Assembly (NCBI RefSeq): GCF_003347515.1
Contig: NZ_QEII01000318.1
Span: forward strand, 1-64,000
Direction: 5' to 3'
DNA length: 64,000 nt
Source of the DNA: Rhodoferax ferrireducens
GTDB lineage: Bacteria; Pseudomonadota; Gammaproteobacteria; Burkholderiales; Burkholderiaceae_C
In this document: in pieces, positions 26,437 through 63,134 of the stretch
Layout: each line of letters begins with the position of its first letter
How positions within the stretch are numbered: position 1 is the stretch's first letter
Made by a program: the position numbers and the translations under genes
The notes under the pieces: model-generated
What the model saw: only the letters and a program-made list of their open reading frames with translations
The model's database searches: none
What the model was told of the DNA's origin: nothing

Positions 26437-28953
26437 ATGGCTGAAATAGCAATAAAACATCATGCCGACAGGGCGTGGGACCGTGTCATGGGCCAGCTCC
26501 GTGCCGAGATCGCACAACGCAAGGTGCATCCTTCGCGTGTCGTGGTGCTGGTGCCGTATGCCCAGCTGATACAGGAAGCCCGCAGTGCCTGGTCGCGGGG
26601 GCTTGACCGTTCCCTTGCCCCGGGGACGGGGCAAGCGCATTTTCTGCCACGTTTCGAAACCACCATGAACTGGACCCGCAGCCTGGGCGGTTTCGAGCCG
26701 GGCGGGGACGATGTGCGCCTGGACGCCGCGCGGGACGTGCTGACAGCCGCCTCCATGCTGGCGCGCACCGGGCTGGCCGCGCATCAAAACGTGTTGGCCG
26801 CTCGCTTGATGGAAGCCACCTGGAGCCTGGCCCGGATTGCCGCTGCTGTGCCACCGGCGGCGCGTGCGCAGTGGGGTGCGGACCTGGGCGCCACGCTGAT
26901 CACCGGCATGGATTCCCCGGTGTTGGCCCTGGAAGCTGCGACGGCGCGGATCGCGCTGGCGTGGGCCGCAAGTTCGAGTTACCCGACCGATCCGGTTTTT
27001 TCGGCGACGCCGGACTTGCTGGTGGTGCTGGAAGGTTTTCAGGGCGAACCCATGACGCAGGCCTTGCAGCAGCGCCTGGGTGAGCGGGCGATGGCCCTGC
27101 CGCTGGATGTGGATCTGGAAGGTGCGCCCGGCCGCGTCTCCTTGCATGCCGCGCGCGACGCCGAAGACGAGGCGCATCGTGCTGCCGCCTGTGTGCTGGT
27201 GCATCTGGCAGCCGGTCGCAGTCCGGTCGCCCTGGTCGCGCAGGACCGGGTGTTGACGCGTCGGGTACGCGCCATGCTGGGAGAGCGCGGCGTGGCTTTG
27301 CGCGATGAGACCGGCTGGAAGCTGTCCACAAGCCGCGCCGCCGCGTCGCTGATGAGCCTGCTGCGCGCGCTGGTCTGGGACGCCGCAACCGACGCGGTGC
27401 TGGACTGGCTCAAAAATGCGCCGGCTTTTGATCAAGACGCTCTGGCCCAGGCCGAGACGAGTTGGCGCCGCCTGGGTGCGCGCGACTGGCGTTCGGTGCC
27501 CACGGGCGACACGGTCGCGCTGCAGGTGAAAGCCCTGCGCGACGGCCTGCAATCCGGGCGGCCGCTGGCGCGCTGGCTGGCGGATTTGCGCGGCACTCTG
27601 CAAAGCGCGGGGCAATGGCCGGGCTTGTTGCGCGACCCTGCCGGCATGGCGATGTTGGACGCGCTGCGGCTGCGCGAAGGCGCTGAACTGGAGTTTGCCG
27701 ATGTACCGGCGCGCATGAGCCTGAGCGAGTTCACGTCGTGGGTCAGCCAGACACTGGAGGCGGCCAGCTTTTCGCCCGTGCACCCTGCGCAAACGCAGGT
27801 CGTGATTCTCCCCTTAAGCCAGTTGCTGGGCCGGCCGCTGGCGGCGGTGGTGCTGCCCGGCTGTGATGAGGTTCGATTGCCGGTGTCGCCCGAGCCGCCC
27901 GGCCAGTGGACGCCCGCCCAGCGCGTGCTGCTCGGCCTGCCTTCGCGCGAGCAACTGGCTGAAGCGACGCGCGCTTCCTGGCATTACGCCCTGCAGTTTC
28001 CGCATGTCGACGTGCTGTGGCGCCTGAGCGAAGGCGGCGAGCACCTGATGGCCAGCGGTTTTGTGCAAGAGCTGCAGCTGCAGCAGGCCCCCGAGCTGGC
28101 CGCCGACCCCAGCGTGCTGCGGGCCGTGACGCCACAGCCCGGTTTCATGCCCCAGCCGCACGGCGATGCGCTACCACTGACCCGGCTCTCCAGCACGGCC
28201 TACGAAGACCTGCGCCGCTGCCCGTATCGCTTTTTTGCGCTACGCCAGCTCAAGCTGCAGGAGTCGGACGAGCTGGACACGGAACTCGGCAAGCGCGATT
28301 TCGGCAACTGGCTGCACAGCGTGCTCAAACTCTTTCATGAAGCATTGCACGAGGCGCCAGCCCCCGAACTGATTGCGCGAATAGCTATGATTAATGTAGC
28401 GGCCGAACAGGCCACAGTCGAGCTGGGTTTGTCGAAGAGCGAATTCCTGCCCTTCGCTGCTGCCTGGCCGCGCGTGCGCGAGGGCTACCTGGAATGGCTG
28501 GCCGGGCATGAGGCCGGTGGCGCCATGTTCAGTGAAGCCGAGGCCTGGAAAGAAACCCCGCTGGGTCACTTGACCTTGATCGGCAAGATCGACCGAATCG
28601 ATCGGCTGGCGGACGGCAGCCCGATGGTGATGGACTACAAAACCGAAAATCGCAACACCACGGCGCAGCGCATCAAGGAGTCGCTGGAGGACACCCAGCT
28701 CGCGTTTTACGCGGCCCTGCTGACGGACGATACGCTGGCCGCGGCCTACGTGAATGTGGGCGAAAAAGACGCCACCAAAAGCTTCTCGCAACCGGACATC
28801 GTGGGCTTACGTGATCAATTGCTGGAGGGCATTGCCCATGACATGGCCCGCATTGCGGCGGGCGCACCGATGCCGGCCCTGGGCGAGGGCAAGGCCTGCG
28901 ATTTTTGCGCGGCGCGCGGCCTGTGCCGCAAAGATTTCTGGGAAACGACGTGA
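26437..28953 (+). CDS. addB: AddB-like nuclease subunit (PD-(D/E)XK)
   Basis: An 838-aa partner of an AddA-type helicase-nuclease in double-strand break repair. The helicase-like N-terminal part lacks a Walker A motif. The C-terminal nuclease shows [19 protein letters not shown] (first Cys of the cluster, about residue 588), [12 protein letters not shown] then MVMDYKT (catalytic Asp and Asp-x-Lys), and the last Cys group [15 protein letters not shown]. The stop codon TGA shares a base with the ATG of addA. A copy of the dispersed repeat is read through at 28357-28400. No ribosome site is seen before ATG 26437. Confidence 0.85.
28357..28400 (+). repeat. Dispersed repeat copy 1, in addB
   Basis: CCAGCCCCCG, then TGCGCGAATAGCTAT and a terminal GTAGC match the family core. 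It is translated as [15 protein letters not shown], the same codon phase as copies 4, 7, 8 and 12. Confidence 0.6.
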
Positions 28954-31900
28954 TGGAACTGCAAGCCGCTTACGAACACAACGGCCAACTCGTCAGTGCT
29001 GAAGCCTTTTACAAAATAGCCTGCGACCCGCGTCGCAGCGTCGCGGTGGAAGCCTGCGCCGGCGCCGGTAAAACCTGGATGCTGGTGTCGCGCATCGTGC
29101 GCGCCTTGCTCGATGGCGTGGACGCGCAAACGGGCAAGCTCAAGGTGCAGCCGCACGAAATTCTGGCCATCACCTTCACCAAACGCGCGGCCAGCGAGAT
29201 GCGCGAGCGCCTGTACAAATGGCTGTCTGACTTTGCGACTGCCGACCATGAGACTCTGACCAAAGAACTGCGGGATCGTGGTGTTTTGATTAAAAACGAC
29301 CTCCAGCCCCCGTCTGTCCTGCCTGAGCAGCTATCAAATCTGTATCAAAAAATTCTCGCCAGTGGGCGTCAGGTGCAGGTCCGTACCTTTCACAGCTGGT
29401 TTGCCGCCTTGCTGCGCACGGCGCCGCTGGCCACGCTGCAGGCGATGGAGTTGCCGGCCAACTACGAGTTGCTGGAAGACGACGCACCGGCCAAGGCGCT
29501 GGTGTGGCGGCGCTTTTATGCGGCGCTGGTGGCGGAGGGTGAACTGAACGCGGGCCTCAAGGCCGATTTCGAGGCGGTGGTGTTCGAGCATGGCCGCTCG
29601 CAGACTGAAAAAGCCCTGCAGACTGCGCTGGACAAGCGCACCGAGTTCGCCCTGGCCGATGCCCAGGGCGTGGTGGACCAATCCGTCACCCACTTCTGCG
29701 ACCAGTTCCCCGACTTTGCCTGGCTGGCCGAGCCGGATGACTTTCTGCGCGCCGAGCCGCAGCGCTGGCAAACCCTGCTGGACGCAGCCAAAGCCCTGGG
29801 CGGCGCCAGCGCCAAAACCTTCTCAGCCAAAGGGGTCGAGCTTGAGATGGCCCTGACGGCGGGCGATATCTCCGCCGCCTTCGCCGCCTTGCTGACCGCC
29901 ACCGGCACGCCGCGCAAGTTTGGCGAAAAGATTGCCGGCATTGAGTCGGTGCGCGAGGCGCAAGACCTGGTGTTGCGCGTGGTGGACGCCCGGGCGCAAC
30001 ACGCGGCCTGGACTTACCAGCAACGCATGGCGCGGCTCAGCCGGCTACTGCTCAAGGAATTCTCCAAGCTCAAGCGCGAGCAGGGCTGGGTCGACATGAA
30101 TGACGTGGAGCGCGCCGCCCTGGTGATGCTGAGCGACCCCGTACTCTCGGGCTGGGTGCAGGAGCGCCTGGATGCGCGCGTCAAACACCTGCTGATTGAC
30201 GAATTCCAGGACACCAACCCGCTGCAGTGGCAGGCACTGCGCTCGTGGCTTAGCGGCTACGCCGGCGCGGGCGGCGGGTCGAGCGGCGGTGCCGGTGCCA
30301 CGGCGCCCAGCGTGTTCATCGTGGGTGACCCCAAGCAAAGCATTTACCGCTTTCGCCGGGCCGAACCCCAGGTGTTCAAGGCGGCCAAAGCCTTCGTGCG
30401 CGATGGCCTGGGTGGTGATTTGCTGAGTTGTGACCACACCCGGCGCAACGCCACCGGCGTCATTGCGGCCGTGAATGCCGCCATGGGTGAGGCGGCCGAG
30501 GCCGACGGTTACGACGGCTTCCGCCCTCACACCACCAGTTCGACCGAAGCCGGTCTGGTGTGCCAACTGCCGCCCATCCCGAGGTCGGCAGGCCCGGCTG
30601 GTGCCGGCGGGGAAGAGGGTTCGGGCGAAGGCGCATGGCGCGACAGCCTCAGCACCCCGCGCGAAATCCCCGAGGAAACCCTGCGCACGCTGGAAGCGCG
30701 CCAGGCGGCCCGTTGGATCACGCAACAGTTGACCAGGGTCGATGCCGAAGGCATGCCTCAAGGTGGCAGCGCGGGGGTCGGCACCGGTTTGCAGCCCTCG
30801 GACGTCATGGTGCTGTCGCGCAAGCGCGCCGGCCTGATGCCCTTGCAGGACGAGTTGCGCAAGCTGCACATCGCCGCCCAGATTGGCGAAAAAACCGAGC
30901 TCATCGATTGCTGCGAAGTGCAGGACATTGTCGCCCTGCTCGATGTGCTGGTCTCGCCCCAGCACGACCTGTCGCTGGCGCGGGTGCTCAAGTCGCCCTT
31001 GTTCAGTTTGCCGGACGAATCACTGGTGCAACTTGCGCTGGCACAACGCGAAGCGAACCAACCCTGGTTTGAGTTACTACAAAAAACAGAGCTACTTGCG
31101 CAGGACGGACGTGGGCTAGCGGCCACTTTGACTCAATGGAAAGGCTGGCTCGACGAACTGCCGCCGCACGACGCCCTGCAGGCCATCTACACCCACGGCG
31201 ACGTGCTGGCGCGCTTTGCGGCCGCAGTGCCGGCGAACCAGCGCGATGCCGTGCTGGCGAACCTGAGCGCCTTGCTGGGCGTGTCGCTGCAACTCGGTGG
31301 CGGGCGTTTCACCACGCCTTATGCGTTTGTGCGCGCCCTCAAAGCCGGTGGCGTGCTGGCGCCGGCGGCGGTCAACCCGCATGCCGTGCGCCTGCTCACC
31401 ATCCACGGCGCCAAGGGCCTGGAGGCGAAGGCCGTGCTCTTGCTGGACACCGACACACCGGAGCGCAACGCCGACACCATGGGTGTGCTGGTGGACTGGC
31501 CGGGCGAGGCCGAGTGGCCGAACCGGTTTGTCTTTCTGGCCAGCGAAAGCCATCCTCCAACCTGTGCCGTGCCCACGCTGGAGGCCGAACGGGTGGAGCG
31601 TCTGCGTGAGGAACTCAACGCCTTGTATGTGGCCCTGACCCGGGCCCGGCACACGTTGGCCATTTCCAGCATCGAGCCCTACCGCGCCGCCGAACGCAGC
31701 TGGTGGCTGCGCCTCGCCGATCTGGCGACACCGATCACACTGTCCGGGCAGGCTGCGCCAGCCATTAGCAGCGCGCCGGCGTCTCAAGACGTGTTTTATT
31801 TGAAAGAACTGCCGCTAGCCCCCGTGGAACATGCGCAATCCGCTATAAAAACTGAAGCGATTTCAGCGTCGGCCACGCCCCGGGCTGATTCGACTGACAC

Positions 31901-32387
31901 TCTGCCCGGCGGCACCGAGGAAGACGCGGATTCCCCCTCCGCCCGCATCGGCAAAGCCATGCACCGCCTGCTGGAATGGGGCGATGCATCAGGCAACAAC
32001 ACGGCCGCAGCGGCCCGCGAGTTTGAGCTGACGCCCGAGCAGGGTGTCCAGGCGGCGGCCATGGCCGGGCGCATTTTGCAGGGCGAGGGCGCCTGGGCGT
32101 GGGACAAGGCGGTGCTGGACTGGCAGGGCAACGAAGTCGAGCTGATGTACCAGGGCGAACTGCTGCGCCTGGACCGCCTGGTGCAGCGCAAGGACGGCGC
32201 ACAGGCAGGCCACTGGTGGGTGCTGGATTACAAATCGGCCCAATCGCCACAAAACCAGCCGGAGCTGGTGGCGCAACTGCGCGGCTACCAGGCTGCGGTG
32301 CAAGCCATTTATCCGGATGACGTGGTCAGGGCGGCGTTTTTGACGCCGCAAGGGGCTTTGATAGAAATGATGGGCACCCCTGCATAA
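28953..32387 (+). CDS. addA: AddA-like helicase-nuclease (UvrD family)
   Basis: A 1144-aa superfamily 1 helicase with a C-terminal RecB-type nuclease. Visible motifs are Walker A EACAGAGKTWML (about residues 29-40), TFTKRAASEMRERL (Ia), LLIDEFQDTNP (II), VGDPKQSIYRFRRAEP (III), LLTIHGAKGLEAKAVLL (V) and YVALTRARHTL (VI). The nuclease end has WVLDYKSAQ (Asp-x-Lys). With AddB it would unwind and trim broken DNA ends before RecA loading. Three copies of the dispersed repeat lie inside the gene, in segments between motifs, together with Gly/Ser-rich inserts (near residue 440). ATG 28953 overlaps the addB stop by one base. Confidence 0.9.
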   Translation: MELQAAYEHNGQLVSAEAFYKIACDPRRSVAVEACAGAGKTWMLVSRIVRALLDGVDAQTGKLKVQPHEILAITFTKRAASEMRERLYKWLSDFATADHETLTKELRDRGVLIKNDLQPPSVLPEQLSNLYQKILASGRQVQVRTFHSWFAALLRTAPLATLQAMELPANYELLEDDAPAKALVWRRFYAALVAEGELNAGLKADFEAVVFEHGRSQTEKALQTALDKRTEFALADAQGVVDQSVTHFCDQFPDFAWLAEPDDFLRAEPQRWQTLLDAAKALGGASAKTFSAKGVELEMALTAGDISAAFAALLTATGTPRKFGEKIAGIESVREAQDLVLRVVDARAQHAAWTYQQRMARLSRLLLKEFSKLKREQGWVDMNDVERAALVMLSDPVLSGWVQERLDARVKHLLIDEFQDTNPLQWQALRSWLSGYAGAGGGSSGGAGATAPSVFIVGDPKQSIYRFRRAEPQVFKAAKAFVRDGLGGDLLSCDHTRRNATGVIAAVNAAMGEAAEADGYDGFRPHTTSSTEAGLVCQLPPIPRSAGPAGAGGEEGSGEGAWRDSLSTPREIPEETLRTLEARQAARWITQQLTRVDAEGMPQGGSAGVGTGLQPSDVMVLSRKRAGLMPLQDELRKLHIAAQIGEKTELIDCCEVQDIVALLDVLVSPQHDLSLARVLKSPLFSLPDESLVQLALAQREANQPWFELLQKTELLAQDGRGLAATLTQWKGWLDELPPHDALQAIYTHGDVLARFAAAVPANQRDAVLANLSALLGVSLQLGGGRFTTPYAFVRALKAGGVLAPAAVNPHAVRLLTIHGAKGLEAKAVLLLDTDTPERNADTMGVLVDWPGEAEWPNRFVFLASESHPPTCAVPTLEAERVERLREELNALYVALTRARHTLAISSIEPYRAAERSWWLRLADLATPITLSGQAAPAISSAPASQDVFYLKELPLAPVEHAQSAIKTEAISASATPRADSTDTLPGGTEEDADSPSARIGKAMHRLLEWGDASGNNTAAAAREFELTPEQGVQAAAMAGRILQGEGAWAWDKAVLDWQGNEVELMYQGELLRLDRLVQRKDGAQAGHWWVLDYKSAQSPQNQPELVAQLRGYQAAVQAIYPDDVVRAAFLTPQGALIEMMGTPA
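29303..29352 (+). repeat. Dispersed repeat copy 2, in addA
   Basis: CCAGCCCCCGT and GCAGCTATCAAAT are recognisable, but the TGCGCA core is degenerate. It is translated as QPPSVLPEQLSNLYQKI, a different phase from copy 1. Confidence 0.5.
31071..31122 (-). repeat. Dispersed repeat copy 3, in addA, antisense
   Basis: On the minus strand GCTAGCCCACGTCCGTC is followed by TGCGCAAGTAGCT and a terminal GTAGTAA. The gene reads its complement as LLQKTELLAQDGRGLA. Confidence 0.6.
31814..31864 (+). repeat. Dispersed repeat copy 4, in addA
   Basis: GCTAGCCCCCGTGGA, ATGCGCAA and GCTATAAAA are a close match. It is read as LAPVEHAQSAIK between the last helicase motif and the nuclease domain, a linker that tolerates insertion. 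Confidence 0.7.
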
Positions 32388-32439
32388 ATTCGCCGTTGCC
32401 AGCGCAGCCAAATTCGCCATGATGAGTGTCGTGGTCCAA

Positions 32440-32470
32440 TTCGTCATTGCGAGCGCAGCGCGGCAATCCA
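32440..32470 (+). repeat. Single copy of a 31-bp REP-like unit
   Basis: The segment begins TTCGTCATTGCGAGCGCAGC and differs at one base from each arm of the perfect inverted pair at 37504-37572. It lies between addA and the flavoprotein gene. The GTCATTGCGAGCG opening is a short repeat seen in many bacteria. Confidence 0.7.
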
Positions 32471-32555
32471 GGCGGTTGCTTCTGTCATGGCGAGGCGCGA
32501 CAGCGACGCGTGCGCTTGCAGATGACGCTTCAATTAACAATGGAATAGAGATTCG

Positions 32556-33917
32556 ATGAAAAAAGTGATTGTGGTCGGTGGCGGGCCGGCTGGCCTGATG
32601 GCCGCTGATGTGTTGTCCCGCTCCGGTGTGGAGGTCCATGTGTATGACGCCATGCCCTCGGTGGGGCGCAAGTTCTTGCTGGCGGGCAAGGGCGGGTTGA
32701 ATCTGACGCACTCGGAACCGGTGGATATTTTTGCCTCGCGTTTTGGCGCCCGGCGTACCCAGATCGCGGCCTTGCTGCAGGGTTTTGACGGCACACAAGT
32801 GCGGGAATGGGCCAAGGGATTGGGGGTGGACACTTTTGTCGGTACCTCGGGCCGCGTGTTTCCGGCGGACATGAAGGCCGCGCCTTTGCTGCGCGCCTGG
32901 TTGTCCCGCCTGCGCCATCCGGCGGCGGGACCGGGCGTGCAGTTTCACATGCGCCATCGCTGGACCGGCTGGAGCGCCGACAGCGCGGAGGGCACCCATT
33001 TGAATTTCGACACCCCGCAAGGCCCGGTGCAAGTGCAAGCCGACGCCGTGGTGCTGGCATTGGGCGGCGGCAGTTGGGCGCGACTGGGCAGCAACGGCGC
33101 CTGGGTGCCGTGGCTGCAAGCGCGGGGCGTGGCGGTCGCGCCGCTGTTGCCTGCCAACTGCGGCTTTGATGTGGCCGCAAGTCAGGCCCGTGAAGCGCAG
33201 CAGGCTGCTGGGCATCCCGCCATGCAGGGTGAAACCCGTCGTGAATTTTTGAAAGAACTGATAGGCCAAAGCCCCGTGGTGCCAAGGGGCTGGAGCGAAC
33301 ATTTCTCCAGCCGTTTTGCCGGTCAGCCCTTCAAGTCTGTGGCGATTCATTTCACCACCTCGCAAGGCATGAGTTTTCAGCGCAAGGGCGAATTCGTCGC
33401 CACCGAAACGGGCGTCGAGGGCAGCCTGATTTACGCCGCCTCCAGCCTCTTGCGCGACGACATCATCCGTCAGGGTCACGCCAGCTTCTCTCTTGATTTA
33501 CTGCCTGATATGTCGGCAGAAAAGGTGCTGGCCGAAGTGCGCCACCCGCGCGGCTCCCGTTCGCTCTCCAGCCACCTGAAAAGCCGCCTGAACATCGAAG
33601 GCATCAAAGCCGCCATCCTGCATGAGTTACTGAGCAAAGAGCAGATGAACGACCCGGCCCAGCTCGCCGCCGCCATCAAGGCCCTGCCCATCACGCTGAT
33701 GGCCGCCCGGCCTCTCGACGAAGCCATCAGCACCGCTGGCGGTGTGTTGTTTGAAGCCATCGACCCCAACCTGATGCTGGAACAATTGCCCGGCGTGTTT
33801 TGCGCCGGCGAGATGCTGGATTGGGAAGCGCCGACGGGCGGGTATTTGCTGACGGCTTGCTTTGCCAGCGGCAAACGGGCGGGTGAGGGGGCTCTGGCGT
33901 ACCTTGGAGGTAAATAG
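32556..33917 (+). CDS. NAD(P)/FAD-dependent flavoprotein, HI0933/BaiN-like (TIGR03862-type)
   Basis: A 453-aa Rossmann-fold flavoprotein. The FAD-binding motif VVGGGPAGLMAADVL is at residues about 5-19, followed by VGRKFLLAGKGGLNLTHSE, the fingerprint of this family, and a C-terminal FAD segment with FCAGEMLDWEAPTGGYLL. The physiological substrate is unknown; relatives act as reductases of uncertain role. It stands alone between repeat-bearing intergenic regions. Confidence 0.85.
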   Translation: MKKVIVVGGGPAGLMAADVLSRSGVEVHVYDAMPSVGRKFLLAGKGGLNLTHSEPVDIFASRFGARRTQIAALLQGFDGTQVREWAKGLGVDTFVGTSGRVFPADMKAAPLLRAWLSRLRHPAAGPGVQFHMRHRWTGWSADSAEGTHLNFDTPQGPVQVQADAVVLALGGGSWARLGSNGAWVPWLQARGVAVAPLLPANCGFDVAASQAREAQQAAGHPAMQGETRREFLKELIGQSPVVPRGWSEHFSSRFAGQPFKSVAIHFTTSQGMSFQRKGEFVATETGVEGSLIYAASSLLRDDIIRQGHASFSLDLLPDMSAEKVLAEVRHPRGSRSLSSHLKSRLNIEGIKAAILHELLSKEQMNDPAQLAAAIKALPITLMAARPLDEAISTAGGVLFEAIDPNLMLEQLPGVFCAGEMLDWEAPTGGYLLTACFASGKRAGEGALAYLGGK

Positions 33918-33919
33918 GG

Positions 33920-33966
33920 CTGTAGCCCCCGTGGATAGTGCGCAGGAAGCTATTTAAATAATAGTG
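33920..33966 (+). repeat. Dispersed repeat copy 5, intergenic
   Basis: TGTAGCCCCCGTGGATAGTG, then CGCAGGAAGCTATT and AATAGTGA. It lies directly after the flavoprotein stop codon and upstream of the toxin-antitoxin promoter. Confidence 0.7.
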
Positions 33967-33980
33967 ATCAAGGGGTGTTA

Positions 33981-34036: not shown

Positions 34037-34055
34037 ATTCTCCAGGAGCCGCACC

Positions 34056-35083: not shown

Positions 35084-35108
35084 GTGGTTGGGGTATTTTG
35101 AGGGGTTT

Positions 35109-35161
35109 TAGGCCGCTAGCCCTTGATGGGCCAGCGCAGGCAGCTATCAAGATAATAGCCG
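35109..35161 (+). repeat. Dispersed repeat copy 6, intergenic
   Basis: GCCGCTAGCCC, AGCGCAGGCAGCTATC and AATAGCC are present, with the C run shortened. It sits between the RES toxin gene and ffs. Confidence 0.6.
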
Positions 35162-35175
35162 TTGAAAGAATGAGG

Positions 35176-35273
35176 TTGACGGACCTTGACCCCGGCACTG
35201 GCTTTGCAGTTAGGGCTGCTTGGTTCCCCATCTGACCCGGTTGGCCGCTCCACCATGCGGGAAGGCCCGTCAA
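35176..35273 (-). ncRNA. ffs: Signal recognition particle 4.5S RNA
   Basis: Read on the minus strand this 98-nt segment closes with a 10-bp terminal stem (TTGACGGGCC with GGTCCGTCAA, one G-U pair). The centre holds GGGTCAGATGGGGAACCAAG followed by CAGCCC: a GGAA tetraloop on a short stem and the asymmetric CAG/AGCAGC loop that binds Ffh. A TATAAT box lies 5-6 bp upstream of its 5' end (35279-35284). Next to dnaX is a usual location for ffs in betaproteobacteria. Exact ends are inferred from the stem. Confidence 0.88.
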
Positions 35274-35426: not shown

Positions 35427-37490
35427 ATGTCCTATCTCGTGCTCGCCCGTAAGTACCGCCCCCGCAACTTCACTGAAATGGTGGGGCAGGACCATGTGGT
35501 GCAGGCGCTGAGCAACGCGCTCACCACGCAACGTTTACACCATGCCTATCTGTTCACCGGCACGCGCGGTGTCGGCAAGACCACGGTGTCGCGCATTCTG
35601 GCCAAATCGCTCAATTGCCAAGGGCCGGACGGGCAAGGCGGCATCACCGCCACGCCGTGCGGCGTCTGCCAGGCCTGTACCGACATTGATTCCGGCCGCT
35701 TTGTTGACTACACCGAGCTCGATGCCGCGTCCAACCGGGGTGTGGACGAGGTGCAGGCCCTGCTGGAGCAGGCGGTTTACAAGCCGGTGCAGGGTCGCTT
35801 CAAGGTCTTCATGATCGATGAGGTGCACATGCTCACCAACACGGCCTTCAACGCCATGTTGAAGACGCTGGAAGAGCCGCCCGAGTACCTGAAATTTGTG
35901 CTGGCCACGACCGACCCGCAAAAAGTGCCGGTTACCGTGCTGTCGCGCTGTCTGCAGTTCAATCTACGGCCCATGGCGCCCGAGACCATTCGCGAGCATC
36001 TGCAAAAAGTCCTGCAGACCGAGAACGTGTCGGCCGATCTGCAGGCGCTGCGCTTGCTGGCCCGTGCGGCGCGCGGCTCCATGCGCGATGCCCTGAGTCT
36101 CTCCGATCAAGCCATTGCCTTCGGCGCCGGCCAGCTGACGGAGGCCACGGTGCGCCAGATGCTGGGCAGCGTGGACCGCTCCTATGTATTTCGCCTGCTG
36201 GAAGCCCTGGCCCTGGGTGATGGCAAGACCGTGGTCGAAACCTCCGAGGCCTTGCGTCTGAACGGATTGAGTGCCGCCTCCACGCTGGAAGAAATGAGTT
36301 CGGTGCTGCAACGCATGGCCGTATTGCAGGCCGTGCCGACTGCCGCTGCCGAAGCCGATGAGACGGACCCGGAAGCGGCGGATATGGCTCGCCTGGCTGA
36401 TCTGATGCCGGCCGACGAAACCCAGTTGCTCTACAGCATTTGCCTGCACGGACGCGGCGAACTGGGCCTGGCCCCAGACGAATACGCGGCGCTGACCATG
36501 GTATTGCTGCGATTGCTGGCATTCAAGCCCCAAGCTGGCCATCAGGTACGAGCGGAAAAAAAAACTCTGATTGAGACGCGGCAGGCGGTAGTCGCCCCCG
36601 CGTTGCAAGCCTTGCCTGCGTCGGCACCCCCAGCACCTGTCGAAAAGCCAGTCGCAACATCAGCGATACCTGCGCCTGTTGCCCCGGCGCCCGCCGTGGT
36701 TGCGCCAGTGGCTCCGGTAGCGCCTACCGCCGCTGCTACCACCACGCCGATGCCAGCCATGGCGCCTGCTGCGGCTCCATCCGCACCCGCATCCAGCCCG
36801 GCGCGCGTTCAACCGTGGGAGGACGAGCCAAATCGGCCTCCAGCCCCCGTACCACCTGCACAAGTTGCTATAAAAAATGCAGCAAACGAAGCGCCAACGC
36901 CCACACGGCCATCGGGTCAGCAGGTTCCCGTCGTCAGCATGTCGATGACCGCGCCACCTCTTCGTTCTATTGAATCAAATAAGCCTCTAGCCCCTGTAGA
37001 TACTGCGCAAGAAGCTACTAATATAGTAGCAATTCCGGTGCGCGTACAGGCCGATTCACGCGTTGAGTCGGCGGCGGGCCAGGCCGCGGCAACGGTGTTG
37101 GTGCCTACGGAAGAGGGTGACTTCTGGTACCGCACGGTGCAGCAGTTGATTGCGGCAGACGCCATCACCGCCCTGGTGCGCGTGCTGGCGCTGCAGTCGC
37201 AATTGGTGGCGCGTGATACCGATCAGTGGATTTTGCGGGTGGAGAGTGCATCGCTAAACCAGTCCGGCACCCGTGAGCGCTTGACCACGGCCTTGCAGGC
37301 CGCTGGCCACGATGTGCGCCTGGTGGTGGAGATCGGCCGCGTCACGGACTGTCCGGCCCGGCGCAATACCGTTGCGGCAGAGGAGCTTCAGCTGGCGGCC
37401 GAAAAAATCATTTTTGACGATCCGTTCGTGCAAACCATGATGCGTGATTTTGGAGCGAAAATCGTACCTGGCAGCATCAAACCCGGCTAA
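35427..37490 (+). CDS. dnaX: DNA polymerase III subunits gamma and tau
   Basis: A 687-aa clamp-loader ATPase. The AAA+ module has VGQDHVVQALSNAL, Walker A GTRGVGKTTVSRILAK (about residues 45-60), a four-Cys zinc module (CGVCQAC plus one earlier Cys), Walker B VFMIDEVHML and sensor 1 LATTDPQKVPVT. Domain III ends near residue 370. A Pro/Ala-rich linker follows and the C-terminal tau domain resumes around residue 560. At codons 377-379 a run of nine A precedes a hairpin, so a shorter gamma form of 382 aa probably arises by -1 frameshifting. Two dispersed repeats are inside the linker. Immediately upstream is ffs on the other strand. Confidence 0.97.
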   Translation: MSYLVLARKYRPRNFTEMVGQDHVVQALSNALTTQRLHHAYLFTGTRGVGKTTVSRILAKSLNCQGPDGQGGITATPCGVCQACTDIDSGRFVDYTELDAASNRGVDEVQALLEQAVYKPVQGRFKVFMIDEVHMLTNTAFNAMLKTLEEPPEYLKFVLATTDPQKVPVTVLSRCLQFNLRPMAPETIREHLQKVLQTENVSADLQALRLLARAARGSMRDALSLSDQAIAFGAGQLTEATVRQMLGSVDRSYVFRLLEALALGDGKTVVETSEALRLNGLSAASTLEEMSSVLQRMAVLQAVPTAAAEADETDPEAADMARLADLMPADETQLLYSICLHGRGELGLAPDEYAALTMVLLRLLAFKPQAGHQVRAEKKTLIETRQAVVAPALQALPASAPPAPVEKPVATSAIPAPVAPAPAVVAPVAPVAPTAAATTTPMPAMAPAAAPSAPASSPARVQPWEDEPNRPPAPVPPAQVAIKNAANEAPTPTRPSGQQVPVVSMSMTAPPLRSIESNKPLAPVDTAQEATNIVAIPVRVQADSRVESAAGQAAATVLVPTEEGDFWYRTVQQLIAADAITALVRVLALQSQLVARDTDQWILRVESASLNQSGTRERLTTALQAAGHDVRLVVEIGRVTDCPARRNTVAAEELQLAAEKIIFDDPFVQTMMRDFGAKIVPGSIKPG
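36544..36603 (+). promoter_or_regulatory. Programmed -1 frameshift signal in dnaX
   Basis: Nine A residues (36556-36564) form the slippery A-AAA-AAA in frame after GAA. A shift of -1 gives AAC TCT GAT and then TGA at 36572-36574, so the short product has 382 residues. A hairpin starts 12 nt after the slip site: ACGCGG (36576-36581) with CCGCGT (36598-36603) and GGCG with CGCC inside. AGGT at 36544-36547 could act as the upstream Shine-Dalgarno-like stimulator. The layout mirrors that in E. coli dnaX. Confidence 0.75.
36838..36883 (+). repeat. Dispersed repeat copy 7, in dnaX linker
   Basis: CCAGCCCCCGTACC, TGCACAAGTTGCTAT and AAAAAATGCAGCAAA. Read as PAPVPPAQVAIKNAA. Confidence 0.65.
36981..37034 (+). 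repeat. Dispersed repeat copy 8, in dnaX linker
   Basis: CCTCTAGCCCCTGTAGATAC, TGCGCAAGAAGCTACTA and TAGTAGCAA. Read as LAPVDTAQEATNIVA. Its right half is a hairpin, GCTACTA with TAGTAGC. Confidence 0.75.
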
Positions 37491-37503: not shown

Positions 37504-37572
37504 TTCGTCATTGCGAGCGCAGCGTGGCAATCCATGCCCCCTGGATTGCCACGCTGCGCTCGCAATGACGAA
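37504..37572. repeat. Perfect 31-bp inverted repeat of a REP-like unit
   Basis: The arm at 37504-37534, opening TTCGTCATTGCGAGCGCAGC, is exactly inverted at 37542-37572 with a 7-nt loop (TGCCCCC). As RNA this is a very stable hairpin 13 bp after the dnaX stop codon and 50 bp before ybaB. It may end the dnaX transcript or protect its 3' end. The same unit occurs singly at 32440-32470. Confidence 0.9.
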
Positions 37573-55119: not shown

Positions 55120-55139
55120 CCAGAGGCGATTTTGACTGA

Positions 55140-57209: not shown

Positions 57210-57434
57210 AAAAAACTCCTGTCGTTGTTTCGCTGAGTAGTGGTGCAACGCAAGCGGCACCACCGCTGCGTTGCTTCCTCGCTGCGAAACACCAATGGAA
57301 ATTGATGCAGGCGATTGGCCAACCGACTCAATGTACCGTGAAAAAAGTGGGTTTCAGGGCCCAGCAAGTGGTGAGTAAGTAAAATCAGGGTTAATCCTTA
57401 GACTTTACTGATTTAACTCAACCCAAGAACCACC

Positions 57435-57971
57435 ATGTCCCTTGACAACGTTACCCCTGGCAAAAACGCCCCCGAATCCTTCAATGTGATCATCGAAATT
57501 CCGATGAACGCCGATCCGGTGAAGTATGAAGTGGATAAAGCCACTGGCGCCATTTTTGTGGACCGCTTCATGAGCACCGCCATGCACTACCCCACCAACT
57601 ACGGATATGTGCCCAAAACCATCAGCGGCGACGGCGACCCGGTGGACGTGCTGGTGATCACGCCGGTGCCCCTCATCCCCGGCGTGGTGGTGACCTGCCG
57701 TGCCATCGGCATTTTGAAGATGACTGACGAAGCCGGTGAAGACGGCAAGGTGTTGGCGGTGCCCATCGACAAGATCCTGTCGCTGTACACCCGTTGGCAA
57801 AAGCCGGAAGACCTGAGCCCCGTGCGCCTGAAGACGATTGCCCACTTCTTTGAGCACTACAAAGACCTGGAAGAAGGCAAATGGGTCAAGATTCAAGGTT
57901 GGGAAGATGCGGAGTCGGCCAAGAAGGAAATTGTTGACGGCATGGCCAACTACAATAAAGCGCAAGAATAA
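57435..57971 (+). CDS. ppa: Soluble inorganic pyrophosphatase
   Basis: A 178-aa family I enzyme that hydrolyses PPi in the cytoplasm and drives biosynthetic reactions. It has [19 protein letters not shown] at about residues 16-34, the metal-binding signature DGDPVDVLV (about 66-74) and [11 protein letters not shown] at the end. The gene is divergent from hppA, 225 bp away. A dispersed repeat follows its stop codon. Confidence 0.97.
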
Positions 57972-57984
57972 TATTGCCATTATT

Positions 57985-58027
57985 GCTTCTAGCCCCCGTA
58001 GAATTGGCGCTAGTAGCTATTAAAAAC
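57985..58027 (+). repeat. Dispersed repeat copy 10, intergenic
   Basis: CTTCTAGCCCCCGTAGAATT, GGCGCTAGTAGCTATTAAAA. It lies just after ppa and before the convergent wax ester synthase gene. Confidence 0.75.
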
Positions 58028-58061
58028 GAAGCGCCTGCGGTGTTGCCACTAGCAGGCGTTT

Positions 58062-59528
58062 TTACTTTTGGGGCCGCGAATCGGCAGGGCGGGTCTGCAC
58101 AAAGCGCTTGCGGCCCGCCTCAAAGGCCTGCACCAATGCCTCCGTCAAATCATGAACATGGGGCACGGCCTTTTTATCCGCAATGACGCCGAAGTCCACC
58201 TCGCCAGCATAGGTCTGGATCGTGATGTTGAGCGCCAGGCCGTGAATAACGATCGACAGGGGATGAAAGGTGAGCATTTTTGCGCCCGCCATATACAAAG
58301 GCACTTGCGGCCCTGGCACATTGCTGATGACCAGATTGGCCAGCATGGGAAGGTGGTGCGACAGGCCGGTCGCGCTGTAAGCCTTGAAGGCGGCCTTGGC
58401 CACACCGCCAACGAGCCACGGCGCCAGCAAAGACGGGTAATCGGTGGGGATCACCCCTTTCAGGTCCACCCTGGCGGTCTTGACCTTGGCGGTGGAGGCC
58501 ATGATGGCTTGTAGGCGCTTCACGGGGTTGGCATAGTGGGTGCCCAGCGCCACCACGGTCATGGAGGCCTGGGTGTTGAGGTCCAGGTTGCCGGCCTCGC
58601 GCAGGCTGATCGGCATGGCGGCCAACATCGATTTCTTCGGAAGGCCGCCGTGTTTGCCCAGGTAAGTGCGCAGCGCCGTGGCGCAAATCCACAAGACGAC
58701 GTCGTTGAACGAGCCGTCTACCGCTTTGGCCATGGCGTGGCAGTCCGCGAACGGGATGCGTGCCGTGCCGAAGCTGCGCTCGCAGGTGACGGCTACGTTG
58801 AAATCAGTGATGGGCGCCAGACGCAACAGCGATGCAGGCCCTTGTCTGTCGCCAGCGCCGCTGAACGATTGTTTGATCAGCGTGCCGCCCAAGGCCTGGG
58901 CCGCGTGAGGCAGGGCCTTGATCAGTTTGACGTATTGCGCCAGTGAATTGGACAACACCGCGCCGATCATTTCCCCCCACTTGAGCTCGTGTTTTTTGGC
59001 ACCGCGGCGCACGGTTGCAGGCGGAGGGACTTTGCGCGGCTTGGCACTGATGTCCATGATGGCCTGGGTCAGGACGGTACCGCCTTTGCCGTCCAGCGCG
59101 GCATGGTGAACTTTGGAATACACGCCTGCGCACAGGCTACCATCCGGGCGCTGGATGGATTCAAAGACATGGAATTCCCACAAGGGCTGGGCGCGGTCCA
59201 TCAGCTGACTGTGCAATTCCGCGCACAACTCTTCCGCCTGGCGCACGCTCAGGGCTTTTGCCTTGACGGGGCGGATATGAAAGTCAAGGTCAACTTTGTC
59301 GACCTGGACCCAGGCCGGGTGTCCGAGGTCAAGCGGCATGAACCCGAGCTTGCGGCTGAAGATGGGCGCCAGATGCAGGCGCTGTGCAATGTGTGCTTTG
59401 AGGGCCTTGATCCAGCTGCCTTTGAATTCAGGCGGGAGTTCATAGAGACAAAACGAGCCGATGTGCATGGGCGTTTCGGGTGTCTCCAGATACAGGAAGG
59501 TGGCGTCGAGGCCGCTGAGTGTGTCCAT
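58062..59528 (-). CDS. Wax ester synthase/diacylglycerol acyltransferase (WS/DGAT)
   Basis: A 488-aa enzyme that esterifies fatty alcohols or diacylglycerol with acyl-CoA. The catalytic motif HHxxxDG reads KVHHAALDGKGG (about residues 137-148). The N-terminus LSGLDATFLYLETPETPMHIG and the later VISNVPGPQVPLYMAGAK are family signatures. ATG 59528 is preceded by GGAGAG. It implies storage of neutral lipid. No fatty acyl reductase gene is near. Confidence 0.93.
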   Translation of the reverse strand: MDTLSGLDATFLYLETPETPMHIGSFCLYELPPEFKGSWIKALKAHIAQRLHLAPIFSRKLGFMPLDLGHPAWVQVDKVDLDFHIRPVKAKALSVRQAEELCAELHSQLMDRAQPLWEFHVFESIQRPDGSLCAGVYSKVHHAALDGKGGTVLTQAIMDISAKPRKVPPPATVRRGAKKHELKWGEMIGAVLSNSLAQYVKLIKALPHAAQALGGTLIKQSFSGAGDRQGPASLLRLAPITDFNVAVTCERSFGTARIPFADCHAMAKAVDGSFNDVVLWICATALRTYLGKHGGLPKKSMLAAMPISLREAGNLDLNTQASMTVVALGTHYANPVKRLQAIMASTAKVKTARVDLKGVIPTDYPSLLAPWLVGGVAKAAFKAYSATGLSHHLPMLANLVISNVPGPQVPLYMAGAKMLTFHPLSIVIHGLALNITIQTYAGEVDFGVIADKKAVPHVHDLTEALVQAFEAGRKRFVQTRPADSRPQK

Positions 59529-59642
59529 GCATTTCTCTCCTGCCACGAGGGTAACCTGCCGCAGTCGGGTGCGCCACTGGCGTTTCGCCTTGCCCGTGTA
59601 TCATGCTTTGACCGACCCACCCGCAGCAAAGAGATCGACGCC

Positions 59643-60167
59643 ATGGATACAACGCAGAAAAAAACCTCAAACGCTTTTCAATCCGGTGGGTCCGCAACTC
59701 AAGCCGTGGCGGATGGCGGTCAATACCTCACTTTGCGGCTTGGGAGTGAGGAGTACGCCATCGATATCTTGCGCGTACAGGAAATCCGCTCCTATGAAGA
59801 GCCCACCCGCATGGTCAATGCGCCGGCATTCATCAAGGGGGTGATCAATCTGCGCGGTGTCATCGTGCCTATCGTCGACCTTCGCCTCAAGCTTAATATT
59901 GACAAGGTGGAGTACACCGAATTCACGGTCGTCATTATTCTGAACGTGCGTGGCACGGTTGTGGGCGCGGTGGTGGACGCGGTGTCGGATGTGGTCACCC
60001 TGACGTCGCAATCCATCAAGCCGGCGCCCCAGTTTGATGCCTCCAATGACGCCCGCTTCATCACGGGTCTGGCGAACGTGGGCGAGCGCATGCTGATCGT
60101 GATGAACATCGAGGCCTTGATGAGCAATGCCGAAATGGGCATGCTGTCTGCCACGCAGCATTCTTGA
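59643..60167 (+). CDS. cheW: Chemotaxis coupling protein CheW
   Basis: A 174-aa adaptor between chemoreceptors and CheA. The domain begins QYLTLRLGSEEYAIDILRVQEI (about residues 27-48 in part), continues with PAFIKGVINLRGVIVPIVDLR and ends with NVGERMLIVMNIEALM. A Gln/Ser-rich N-terminal tail precedes it. No other chemotaxis gene is in the window, so this is a detached copy. Confidence 0.93.
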   Translation: MDTTQKKTSNAFQSGGSATQAVADGGQYLTLRLGSEEYAIDILRVQEIRSYEEPTRMVNAPAFIKGVINLRGVIVPIVDLRLKLNIDKVEYTEFTVVIILNVRGTVVGAVVDAVSDVVTLTSQSIKPAPQFDASNDARFITGLANVGERMLIVMNIEALMSNAEMGMLSATQHS

Positions 60168-60214
60168 TGCCATCCGACACGCGGGCGTGACAGGCCACGA
60201 AACCCCGTAGTAGA

Positions 60215-61423
60215 TTACGTACCTGCCGGATGCCTGAAGGGGCTGCGCTGCTCCAGGACGTCAAGGTATTGGCCAATGCCCTGACCCTCACGCTCCAGAA
60301 AACGCTCTACCGCATCGGCAAACGACGGATGTGCCAGCCAGTGGGCACTGGTGGATTTGACAGGCAGCAAGGCCCTCGCCAATTTGTGCTCGCCTTGGGC
60401 CCCGCCCTCAAATCGCTGGTAACCGTGCTCAATACACCATTGCAGCGGCTGGTAGTAGCAGGCTTCAAAGTGCAGGCAGTCCACCCGCTCCAGTGCACCC
60501 CAGTAGCGTCCGTAGGCGATCGCCTCCTTGGTTTTTAAATCATTTAGGCATCTAGCCCCCGTATAGTCTGCGCTGATAGCTATCAAACTTGTAGCAATTG
60601 GCTGCCCCTGCCGCTCTGCCACGAACAGCAACCAGTTCTCCGGCATGGTGCTCGCCATGCGCCGGAAGAAGTCGCGGCTCAGGTAAGGCGCGTTGCCGTG
60701 CTCCAGGTAGGTGCGCTCGTAGCAGCGGTAGAAAAAATTCCAGTCTTCCGTCGTGATGGCCTGGCCCTGCGACCAGCGGAAGCTGACGCCGGCGTCCGCC
60801 ACCTTCCGACGTTCCTGACGGATTTTCTTGCGTTTTTCTTGCGACAGCGAGGCCAGAAAACCCTCGAAGTCCACATAGGCCGGGTCGCTGTTGGTCCAAT
60901 GAAACTGCACCGTATGGCGCAGCATCATCCCAGCCTGCTCGCATGCCAAGAGGTCGTCAACGCTGGAGAACAGCACATGCAGGGAAGACAGTTTTTCTGC
61001 TTCGCACCATTCAATCAGGGCCTTGGCCAACACGGCCCGGTCGGGCGCGGTGCGCGCCATCAAGCGCGTTCCGGGCACCGGGGTGAAGGGCACGGCCACC
61101 ACGGCTTTGGGGTAGTAGGCCAGGCCGTGTTGCCCATAGGCGTTGGCCCAAGCCTGGTCGAATACATACTCGCCGTAGGAATGGGTTTTGAGGTAGAGGG
61201 CACAGGCGCCCACCAGGGTGCCGTTCCTCTCCAAAAGAATGAAGCGGGGCGTCCAGCCGGTCGCGGGCGTAGCGCTGCCGCTGCCGTGCAAGGCAGCGAG
61301 GTACTCATGCCGCATAAAAGGGGTGATTTCTGGCTGCAAACTCAGCAATGCGTTCCAGTCGCCGGCATTCACCTCCGAGGGCGAGTTCATGACCCGGATG
61401 ACATAATCGTTCGACTCGTGCTT
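60215..61423 (-). CDS. DUF482 family N-acyltransferase (FemAB/GNAT-like)
   Basis: A protein of about 400 aa with a double GNAT-like fold. Recognisable segments are PEITPFMRHEYLAALHGSG near the start, SQEKRKKIRQERRKV, and FEACYYQPLQWCIEHGYQRFEGGAQGEHKLARAL near the end, the DUF482 signature. It probably transfers an amino acid or acyl group, exact role unknown. The start is uncertain: GTG 61423 is preferred, ATG 61390 is possible, and ATG 61459 would share CATG with nadE. A dispersed repeat copy is read antisense inside it as PIATSLIAISADYTGARCL. Confidence 0.85.
   Translation of the reverse strand, partial: KHESNDYVIRVMNSPSEVNAGDWNALLSLQPEITPFMRHEYLAALHGSGSATPATGWTPRFILLERNGTLVGACALYLKTHSYGEYVFDQAWANAYGQHGLAYYPKAVVAVPFTPVPGTRLMARTAPDRAVLAKALIEWCEAEKLSSLHVLFSSVDDLLACEQAGMMLRHTVQFHWTNSDPAYVDFEGFLASLSQEKRKKIRQERRKVADAGVSFRWSQGQAITTEDWNFFYRCYERTYLEHGNAPYLSRDFFRRMASTMPENWLLFVAERQGQPIATSLIAISADYTGARCLNDLKTKEAIAYGRYWGALERVDCLHFEACYYQPLQWCIEHGYQRFEGGAQGEHKLARALLPVKSTSAHWLAHPSFADAVERFLEREGQGIGQYLDVLEQRSPFRHPAGT
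60541..60600 (+). repeat. Dispersed repeat copy 11, in the DUF482 gene, antisense
   Basis: CATCTAGCCCCCGTATAGTC, TGCGCTGATAGCTATCAAAC and TTGTAGCAATTG. It is one of the best preserved copies. Confidence 0.75.
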
Positions 61424-61457
61424 CACTGGTTTTCCATTCCTTTTACACCTGCGGTCC

Positions 61458-63134
61458 ATGACACTCAAACTCTGCGTTGCCCAACTCAATTTCGTCGTTG
61501 GCGACTTGGCCGGCAACTCGCAAAAAATCATTGATGCGGCGCATTTGGCCTATGCCGATGGCGTGCGCCTGTTGCTGACGCCCGAACTCTCCATTTGCGG
61601 CTACGCCGCGGAAGACCTGTTCCTTCGTCACGCTTTTATTGATGCCTGCGATGATGCCGTGAAAACAGTGGCCCGAGCGCTGGCTGGGTTAAAAGACATG
61701 ACGGTGGTTGTCGGTCATCCGACCGGGGGCGACAGCCGCACCCGATCGGTGGCGGTGCAAAGCCGTTTCAACAGTGCCAGCGTCCTGTGCGAGGGGTCGG
61801 TGGTGGCTACCTACGCCAAGCGGGAGCTGCCCAACTACCAGGTGTTTGACGAACGCCGCTATTTCACCCCGGGGCAGGGTGTGTGTGTGTTTGAAGCGGG
61901 TGAGGCGGGCCACAAAGTCAAAGTCGGTCTGCTGATTTGTGAGGATGCCTGGTTTGAAGAGCCGGCACGGTTGACCCAAGCCGCCGGCGCCGACATGCTG
62001 GCGGTCATCAACGCGTCACCGTTTCATGTCGGCAAGGGCGACGAGCGCGAGCAGATGATGCGCATCCGGGTGGCGGCCTGTGGCTTGCCCTTGGTGTACG
62101 CGCATTTGGTGGGTGGTCAGGACGAAGTGATTTTTGAAGGGCATTCGTTTGCGCTCAACGCGGACGGCACGGTCGCCGGTCGCGCCCCTAGTTTTATAGA
62201 GAATGTGTTTGTAGTAGCCGTCGATCGGGCGCAGGCAGCTATTCATTTGGTAGCAAAGGTGGCGCCGCAACGATCTCCCGAGGCAGATCTGTGGGACGCA
62301 TTGGTGCTGGGCGTACGCGACTATATCGGCAAGAACGGCTTTCCCAGTGTGATTCTGGGCCTGTCGGGTGGCATTGATTCGGCGCTGGTACTGGCCGTGG
62401 CGGTGGACGCGCTGGGCAAGGACAGGGTCCGTACAGTCATGATGCCTTCGCCCTACACGGCCGACATCAGCTGGATTGACGCGCGTGACATGGCGGCTCG
62501 CCTGGGCGTGCGCTATGACGAGATTTCCATCGTGCCGGAGTTTGATGCCTTCAAAGCCTCGTTGGCAGGTGAGTTCAAGGGTCTGGCAGAGGACACGACC
62601 GAGGAGAATATCCAGGCCCGTATTCGGGGCACGCTGCTGATGGCGCTCTCCAACAAATTCGGCAGCATCGTTTTGACGACTGGCAACAAGTCTGAAATGG
62701 CAACGGGGTATTGCACACTCTACGGCGACATGGCCGGGGGTTTTGCCGTGATCAAGGATCTGGCCAAAACCACGGTGTTCAGGCTGGCGCGCTGGCGCAA
62801 CGTCAACGACCCCTACGGCACTCATCCTGAGCCGATTCCGGAGCGCATCATTACCCGTCCACCCAGTGCCGAGTTGCGCCCTGACCAGACTGATCAGGAC
62901 AGTTTGCCCCCCTATGAGGTGCTGGACGCGATTTTGGAGCGTTACATGGAGAACGACCAAGGCATGGAAGACATCATTGCCGCTGGCTTTGCCCGTGCCG
63001 ATGTGGAGAAAGTGACCCGCCTTATCAAGATCAACGAATACAAACGCCGACAGGCGCCTGTGGGCATTCGTGTAACTCACCGCAGCTTCGGCAAGGATTG
63101 GCGTTATCCTATTACCAATCGATTTCGCGCTTGA
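61458..63134 (+). CDS. nadE: Glutamine-dependent NAD+ synthetase
   Basis: A 558-aa enzyme completing NAD synthesis. The N-terminal nitrilase-type glutaminase has its triad in LTPELSICGY (Glu), YAKRELPNY (Lys) and LICEDAWFE (Cys). The synthetase domain starts near residue 270 with LGLSGGIDSALVLAVA, the PP-loop, and has TTGNKSEMATGYCTLYGDMAGG. A dispersed repeat copy lies in the linker between the domains (VAVDRAQAAIHLVAK). It is 15 bp upstream of glnB. Confidence 0.96.
   Translation: MTLKLCVAQLNFVVGDLAGNSQKIIDAAHLAYADGVRLLLTPELSICGYAAEDLFLRHAFIDACDDAVKTVARALAGLKDMTVVVGHPTGGDSRTRSVAVQSRFNSASVLCEGSVVATYAKRELPNYQVFDERRYFTPGQGVCVFEAGEAGHKVKVGLLICEDAWFEEPARLTQAAGADMLAVINASPFHVGKGDEREQMMRIRVAACGLPLVYAHLVGGQDEVIFEGHSFALNADGTVAGRAPSFIENVFVVAVDRAQAAIHLVAKVAPQRSPEADLWDALVLGVRDYIGKNGFPSVILGLSGGIDSALVLAVAVDALGKDRVRTVMMPSPYTADISWIDARDMAARLGVRYDEISIVPEFDAFKASLAGEFKGLAEDTTEENIQARIRGTLLMALSNKFGSIVLTTGNKSEMATGYCTLYGDMAGGFAVIKDLAKTTVFRLARWRNVNDPYGTHPEPIPERIITRPPSAELRPDQTDQDSLPPYEVLDAILERYMENDQGMEDIIAAGFARADVEKVTRLIKINEYKRRQAPVGIRVTHRSFGKDWRYPITNRFRA
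62211..62258 (+). repeat. Dispersed repeat copy 12, in nadE
   Basis: GTAGCCGTCGATCGG, GCGCAGGCAGCTATTCA and TTGGTAGCAAAG. The left half has decayed. It is read in the common phase as VAVDRAQAAIHLVA. Confidence 0.65.

What the first reader, a model, noticed from the sequence alone, without database searches (positions are those of the whole stretch)
28357..62258. Dispersed repeat of about 45-60 bp inside conserved genes, five copies read in the same codon phase
Twelve copies share a core AGCCCCCGT, then TGCGCA, AGCTAT and a terminal GTAGC. Nine lie inside genes (addB, addA three times, dnaX twice, moeA, DUF482 gene, nadE) and three between genes. Five copies in four genes (addB, addA, dnaX, nadE) are read as xAPVxxAQxAIxxVA, the phase that avoids stops, and they fall in linkers. 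The right half often forms a hairpin GCTA/TAGC. No copy is seen in the first 28 kb. It looks like a short mobile or spreading repeat that can add a peptide to proteins.
Basis: partly seen in the sequence, partly recalled or inferred. Interest (0 to 1): 0.75.

Follow-up and report, generated by a model that had tools for sequence, protein, structure and literature searches.

The report
Scattered 68-bp DNA motif in Rhodoferax
A 68-letter DNA motif is scattered hundreds of times through this bacterium's genome and, at most of the gene sites tested, was written into existing sequence rather than inserted, much like the tags that a few bacteria use to recognise DNA of their own kind.

Summary
The repeat is real and genome-wide. 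A 30-base pattern from it has 391 matches in the 6.87-Mb genome and none when read backwards. A matrix finds 98 copies in 864 kb and no control hit above 16 bits. Copies are about 68 bp, on both strands; 50 lie inside genes, 42 between.

Mobility is mostly not supported. At 9 of 13 in-gene sites, low-copy relatives have the same gene length and no motif, so it arises or decays in place. No near-identical copies were found among 87. moeA, dnaX (two) and one addA site do differ in length.

This resembles the DNA uptake sequences of Neisseriaceae and Pasteurellaceae: made in place, in tolerant sites, with lineage dialects, and with copies in dprA, addAB, recJ and rarA. A 2025 paper says only those two families are known to have such tags. 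Unlike theirs, this motif is long (about 59 bits). Transformation is untested, competence genes do not separate carriers from non-carriers, and a REP transposase gene ends in a copy in 12 of 12 high-copy genomes. Best reading: a new uptake-type self-DNA motif, not proven.

The parts
28346..28405 (+). copy inside addB, sense, 38 bits
   Evidence: same-length orthologues without it in 7 of 7 low-copy genomes compared
29292..29351 (+). copy inside addA, sense, 56 bits
31071..31130 (-). copy inside addA, antisense, 59 bits
31804..31863 (+). copy inside addA C-terminal linker, sense, 61 bits; linker length varies
33911..33970 (+). intergenic copy at an ORF end
35105..35164 (+). intergenic copy beside the SRP RNA gene
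36829..36888 (+). copy inside the dnaX linker, sense
36976..37035 (+). copy inside the dnaX linker, sense, 80 bits
47708..47767 (-). copy inside moeA (minus-strand gene), sense; 78 bp absent in 9 of 13 low-copy orthologues
57978..58037 (+). intergenic copy
60541..60600 (+). copy inside the DUF482 (FemAB_like) gene, antisense, 74 bits
62200..62259 (+). copy inside nadE, sense, 48 bits
42187..42246 (-). weak copy inside a methyltransferase-domain gene, antisense, 26 bits
22638..22697 (+). weak copy, antisense in an ORF without Pfam match, 22 bits

Best explanation
It is a genome-wide DNA recognition motif of about 68 bp (consensus TTTTAnGnCAAATnGGCCTCTAGCCC[C/T]CGTnnAnnnTGCGCAAGnAGCTATTAAATTnATAGCAA) that accumulates in place by substitution or allele replacement, most likely as an uptake-type tag. 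A surface DNA receptor of the natural-transformation machinery would prefer fragments bearing the motif, homologous recombination would bring in the motif-bearing allele, and the motif would so rise at every place that tolerates it. Shown: copy number, in-place origin or decay at most gene sites tested, both strands, stop avoidance, tolerant sites, lineage dialects, repeated gain or loss. Inferred: that the recognising protein is a DNA-uptake receptor and that recombination is the vehicle.
For: In place: of 13 in-gene sites, 9 have at least one low-copy orthologue of the same length (within 9 bp) without the motif (three of the nine, DUF482 and two genes on L181 and L182, rest on one such genome; two are weak copies). 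Over all site-genome cells, motif above 16 bits in 45 of 52 high-copy and 0 of 61 low-copy, the nearest a G015 cell at 16. In 11 of 17 protein comparisons the motif's 23 residues rank in the least conserved tenth of windows. Little sign of recent copying: closest pair 57 of 70, 200 column shuffles mean 51.8, maximum 57. Information 59 bits against about 14 needed to mark 98 sites in 864 kb, which marks drive or copying rather than plain binding. Intergenic excess 42 of 98 in 11% of sequence, p 7e-16, and stronger there (median 70.5 against 51.4 bits). Fewer copies in low-GC stretches, 9 in 8 against 75 in 32, p 0.04, cut-off chosen afterwards. Genome-maintenance hosts 7 of 46 against 1 of 40 controls, p 0.06. 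dprA carries it in 10 of 10 high-copy and 0 of 10 low-copy genomes fetched. Dialects: G010 reads AGCGCTTGT where this genome reads AGCCC(C/T)CGT. ComEC, DprA and HHH_3 genes are present here. Uptake sequences are described as arising without indels, in permissive core sites, absent from recently acquired genes.
Against: No transformation data here and none found. ComEC, DprA and GspH-type pilins occur in low-copy genomes as well, so competence genes do not separate the two classes. The motif is several times longer than the 9-12 nt uptake sequences. In complete genome G036 orientation follows the replichore, 61 of 89, p 0.0006, which uptake sequences are said not to do; not so in G010 (45 of 83) or here (51 of 98). 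Four of 13 in-gene sites differ in length. Nearest neighbours are slightly more alike than shuffled (48.7 against 46.7). A REP-associated transposase gene ends in a copy in 12 of 12 high-copy genomes.
Confidence: 0.45

Rival explanations
1. A binding site for an intracellular chromosome-organising or replication-linked protein, kept by selection at hundreds of places.
For: Long non-palindromic footprint with A/T tracts in which AAA and TTT replace each other as blocks; replichore polarity in G036, 61 of 89; depletion between divergent genes, 5 of 42 against 31% of bases.
Against: No polarity in G010 or here; 59 bits is far more than such sites need; several genomes of the genus do with 0 to 6 matches; the helical periodicity of A+T is weak (100 of 2000 permutations reach it).
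Confidence: 0.2
2. A REP/RAYT or Rickettsia-palindromic-element-like mobile repeat that inserts, then decays.
For: moeA 78-bp in-frame difference, longer dnaX and dprA loops in carriers. A REP-associated tyrosine transposase gene (NF047646, 83.8 and 81.7 bits in the two checked, cut-off 80) has a copy whose AGCCC lies 19 bp before to 18 bp after its stop codon in 12 of 12 high-copy genomes; roughly 4% of gene ends have a copy so near.
Against: No insertion at 9 of 13 in-gene sites; no near-identical copies among 87; no pairing covariation. A transposase of that kind is present in 11 of 13 low-copy genomes searched too, and there the spacer after its stop has no copy by this genome's matrix (0 of 11, best 1.5 bits; G006 and G048 reach 22 and 20 bits with the G010 matrix, perhaps remnants).
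Confidence: 0.17
3. Some other sequence drive, for instance biased repair or ssDNA-templated conversion at partly similar sequences, without an uptake receptor.
For: Would give in-place change, dialects and the replichore bias of G036.
Against: No candidate enzyme was found; nothing here favours it over uptake.
Confidence: 0.13

Closest known systems
DNA uptake sequences (DUS of Neisseriaceae, USS of Pasteurellaceae)
   Same: Hundreds of copies on both strands, intergenic excess, in-gene copies in tolerant sites, arising without insertion at most sites tested, dialects by lineage, fewer in low-GC stretches, present in genome-maintenance genes (literature passages).
   Different: About 68 bp and 59 bits instead of a 9-12 nt core; another family (Comamonadaceae side of Burkholderiales); uptake untested; replichore bias in one genome.
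Rickettsia palindromic elements
   Same: Copies inside conserved genes read in a stop-free phase.
   Different: No insertion at 9 of 13 sites, no palindrome supported by covariation, in-gene copies on both strands. What Rickettsia elements do is recalled.
REP sequences with RAYT transposases
   Same: Short dispersed repeat; a RAYT gene ending in a copy.
   Different: 50 of 98 copies lie in genes, no near-identical copies among 87, no insertion at 9 of 13 sites.
Statistical motif pairs of R. ferrireducens T118 and P. naphthalenivorans (PMC5217627)
   Same: That paper reports T118 with the most motif pairs of its genomes (140) and ATAGCT(N)22CAAAAG, 125 copies, in P. naphthalenivorans (passages and section 13 read); our motif has ATAGCT(N)22CTAGAG on its reverse strand.
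   Different: No mechanism or orthologue comparison in what I read; that these are the same motif is my inference from the spacing.

Membership tests
DNA uptake sequence (DUS/USS) | Motif strongly over-represented genome-wide | tested here: met
   391 matches against 0 reversed; 98 in 864 kb against 0
DNA uptake sequence (DUS/USS) | Fragments with the motif are taken up or transform better | not testable with these tools
   No experiment; no paper found
DNA uptake sequence (DUS/USS) | Copies arise in place, not by insertion | tested here: met
   at 9 of 13 in-gene sites and NadE, MetRS, RarA against solved homologues; not at the 4 sites whose length differs
DNA uptake sequence (DUS/USS) | Sits in permissive sites of core genes, rare in acquired DNA | tested here: met
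   permissive sites: 11 of 17 comparisons; acquired DNA judged only by low GC, p 0.04, and by 8 viral contigs with an exact match
[quoted passage not shown]
   bias in G036 61/89, none in G010 45/83 or here 51/98
DNA uptake sequence (DUS/USS) | Natural-transformation genes present | tested here: met
   ComEC, DprA, HHH_3 in this genome; present in low-copy genomes too
DNA uptake sequence (DUS/USS) | Dedicated receptor (ComP-like minor pilin) | tested here: inconclusive
   GspH-family pilins in both classes, 28 of 29 genomes; none tied to the motif
Rickettsia palindromic element type | Clean insertion against orthologues | tested here: not met
   not at 9 of 13 sites; possible at moeA, dnaX (two) and addA 31817
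REP/RAYT | Hairpin with covarying stem | tested here: not met
REP/RAYT | RAYT gene flanked by the repeat | tested here: inconclusive
   12 of 12 high-copy genomes at the gene's end; 0 of 11 low-copy genomes that keep the gene, by this genome's matrix

The most novel reading that the evidence does not exclude
A third, independently evolved DNA uptake (self-recognition) sequence system, in Rhodoferax and relatives, with a far longer tag than the 9-12 nt ones described and with lineage dialects, which rewrites protein segments of conserved genes in place; possibly with a domesticated REP transposase as a part.
Probability: 0.4. Interest if true: 0.88.

Novelty: new variant of a known kind. Interest (0 to 1): 0.72.

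Why it matters
[quoted passage not shown] A third case in another family would make it possible to test whether such tags evolve by selfish drive or for safe recombination: 29 of 126 genera sampled in the family have a genome with 12 or more matches, and genomes of one genus can differ by hundreds of copies, for example 234 against 1. It would also explain odd peptide segments in conserved proteins of these bacteria.

Tried and rejected
Hairpin or structured RNA: mutual information over 87 copies linked mainly neighbouring columns, no base-pair covariation; Rfam at gathering scores found only the SRP RNA in the window. Competence genes as the separator of high- and low-copy genomes: ComEC 33 of 35 (missing in G047, high, and G054, low), DprA 24 of 25 (missing in G054), HHH_3 25 of 25, GspH 28 of 29; none separates. 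Y1_Tnp (RAYT) genes: 24 of 25. Another motif in low-copy genomes: inconclusive, since spaced 5-mer pairs there score as high (up to 14.7) as the motif's own pairs do in 140 kb of this genome. Helical phasing of A/T tracts: weak. Later passes of the first small matrix drew in two false sites (57965 -, 48142 +) that the larger matrix dropped. A first dprA script chose wrong frames and failed, redone. The place lists of pattern searches are truncated, so the polarity counts come from fetched stretches only. The G010 matrix has 8 control hits for 83 hits at its 12-bit threshold. Gene calls are from my own codon-score script, not a published caller. On recheck the six host genes not yet scanned and the three control genes without a match were scanned at the hosts' E-value; the counts stayed 7 of 46 and 1 of 40.
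Full report
What is there. The window lies on contig C318 of a 6.87-Mb assembly of 324 contigs. Its genus is very probably Rhodoferax: a same-genus genome, G032, has a contig of 1,114,430 bases, the length of a named Rhodoferax sp. KJN.1 contig. A 30-base pattern taken from the finding has 391 matches with up to 3 mismatches in the genome, 181 and 210 by strand, and none read backwards. A matrix trained on fetched copies finds 98 copies above 16 bits in 864 kb (window plus 40 stretches of 20 kb), none in reversed sequence. The unit runs from about -24 to +44 around the A of AGCCC. Columns 25-27 (GCT), 39 (A), 16-18 (GCG) and 1-4 (GCCC) are 90% or more conserved; columns 9, 10 and 14 vary freely.

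Where it lies. By my gene copies are inside genes, 42 between, 6 overlap (coding share 0.891); intergenic excess p 7e-16. In-gene copies are 26 sense and 24 antisense. Each strand of the consensus has one frame without stops, and 20 of 26 and 17 of 24 copies use it (p 7e-6 and 3e-4). Intergenic copies are stronger (median 70.5 against 51.4 bits), over-represented between convergent genes (11 of 42, 11% of bases) and under-represented between divergent ones (5 of 42, 31%).

Not an insertion at most gene sites tested. I took flanks of 94 copies and looked for the orthologous place in 213 held loci of other genomes; 22 copies had one. Of these, 13 in-gene sites could be compared with genomes of known copy number. 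At 9 of them at least one low-copy genome (6 or fewer pattern matches) has the same length within 9 bp and no motif: addB 28359, addA 29305 and 31117, nadE 62213, DUF482 60554 (G030; G001 is 33 bp shorter), one gene each on L181 and L182 (G030 only), and the two weak copies. At 4 (moeA, dnaX twice, addA 31817) lengths differ. Cells: high-copy 45 of 52 with motif (36 of them at the same length), low-copy 0 of 61 (33 at the same length); a G015 cell at addA 31117 scores 16, just under the threshold. Outside the genus, NadE is longer by 3 and 1 residues than solved homologues 4f4h and 5kha at the motif; MetRS and RarA are shorter there than 6wq6 and 3pvs. The motif segments tend to be poorly conserved: nadE 0.22-0.39 identity against 0.84-0.85 overall, addB 0.30-0.48 against 0.67-0.75, addA 0.39-0.65 against 0.66-0.74. 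moeA: 9 of 13 low-copy orthologues lack exactly 78 bp, the other four lack 48-69 bp, and G037 (41 matches) lacks 78 bp too; G015 and perhaps G006 and G048 keep what looks like the left end of the motif, so deletion in them is as likely as insertion elsewhere.

Little sign of recent copying. Among 87 copies the most alike pair matches at 57 of 70 positions; 200 column shuffles give 51.8 on average and 57 at most. Nearest neighbours are a little more alike than shuffled (48.7 against 46.7), which the gene/intergenic difference may cause. Between this genome and G032, 10 of 11 in-gene copies with a findable flank have a copy at the place.

Distribution. In 60 genomes of the genus the pattern has 0 to 371 matches. 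On a MoeA tree of 28 rows the high-copy class needs 4 changes (bootstrap 3-5; well-supported branches force 2), so it was gained or lost repeatedly. In 200 genomes of the family, 29 of 126 genera have a genome with 12 or more matches (my count on the table; backward controls reach 5); in 146 genomes of the order outside the family none exceeds 4. G010 has its own form, AGCGCTTGT...AAGCGCAAG; other genera show AGCGCCCGT or AGCCGCCGTATTTATTGCC. An exact, narrower pattern hits 8 viral contigs of 2.9 million.

Hosts. Among 46 host genes of this genome, all scanned against Pfam, 7 are genome maintenance (addA, addB, dnaX, a UvrA-like protein, a uracil-DNA glycosylase family member, RarA/MgsA, RecJ) against 1 of 40 length-weighted control genes (DNA ligase; a phage integrase not counted), p 0.06. 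Three of the seven lie together in the window. In 20 dprA loci fetched of 24 found, 10 of 10 high-copy and 0 of 10 low-copy carry a copy in one loop of varying length (37-70 bits), several with a second antisense copy.

Orientation. In complete genome G036, sampled in 26 stretches, 61 of 89 copies point with the leading strand, with origin and terminus placed by me at 3.1 and 1.1 Mb from GC skew (p 0.0006). In G010 45 of 83 and here 51 of 98 follow local skew. G032 and G037 (21 of 26, 15 of 19) are from one or two regions only.

The transposase. Of 25 genomes searched 24 have a Y1_Tnp-domain gene. The kind of about 240 residues is a REP-associated tyrosine transposase by NCBIfam in the two checked; it is in 12 of 12 high-copy and 11 of 13 low-copy genomes. 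In the 12 high-copy genomes a copy sits from 19 bp before to 18 bp after its stop codon (19-61 bits by the best of three matrices, weakest in G037 and G036). In the 11 low-copy genomes that stretch has no copy by this genome's matrix, though the next conserved block is there, with possible remnants in G006 and G048. That fits a permissive spacer as well as a link, so I leave it open.

How it most likely works. In-place origin, information excess, tolerant sites, dialects and repeated gain or loss are what biased uptake plus homologous recombination should produce. PMC1939737 (passages) reports that uptake sequences arise by point mutation rather than insertion; PMC2397512 (abstract and passages) that many arise by recombination, in permissive places of the core genome, and are absent from recently acquired genes; PMC2346458 was read in its first of three parts. 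Length, missing receptor, competence genes in non-carriers and the G036 polarity speak for caution. A search for 'uptake sequence' with 'Comamonadaceae' found 0 papers, and broader ones gave no account in the rows listed; subscription journals are mostly not held. PMC5217627 flagged T118 and a P. naphthalenivorans motif with the same spacing, unexplained.

Noticed in passing
window 32440-32473 and 37504-37537: A 34-bp direct repeat (94% alike, TTCGTCATTGCGAGCGCAGCG.GGCAATCCA.GC), unrelated to the motif.
   Followed up: no
window 35175-35271 (-): Bacterial small SRP RNA, about 10 bases from the intergenic copy at 35105-35164.
   Followed up: no
window 1-16000: GC 0.555 and no copy, against 0.60-0.62 and 3-6 copies per 16 kb in the rest; it may be acquired DNA.
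   Followed up: partly
L382 (and L383-L393), after the stop codon of the RAYT gene: Conserved non-coding block after the RAYT gene in high- and low-copy genomes..TGTCCCCAATTA..AATTGGAATCTGACCCC..; its words occur 0 or 1 times in 864 kb of this genome.
   Followed up: partly
L093: A plasmid (pOS401 of Comamonadaceae bacterium OS-4) carries a copy.
   Followed up: no
G343: A different repeat, TGCCCCCGTCATTCCTGCGCAAGCAGGAAT, four times in another family of the order, three of them within 105 bases of a contig start.
   Followed up: no
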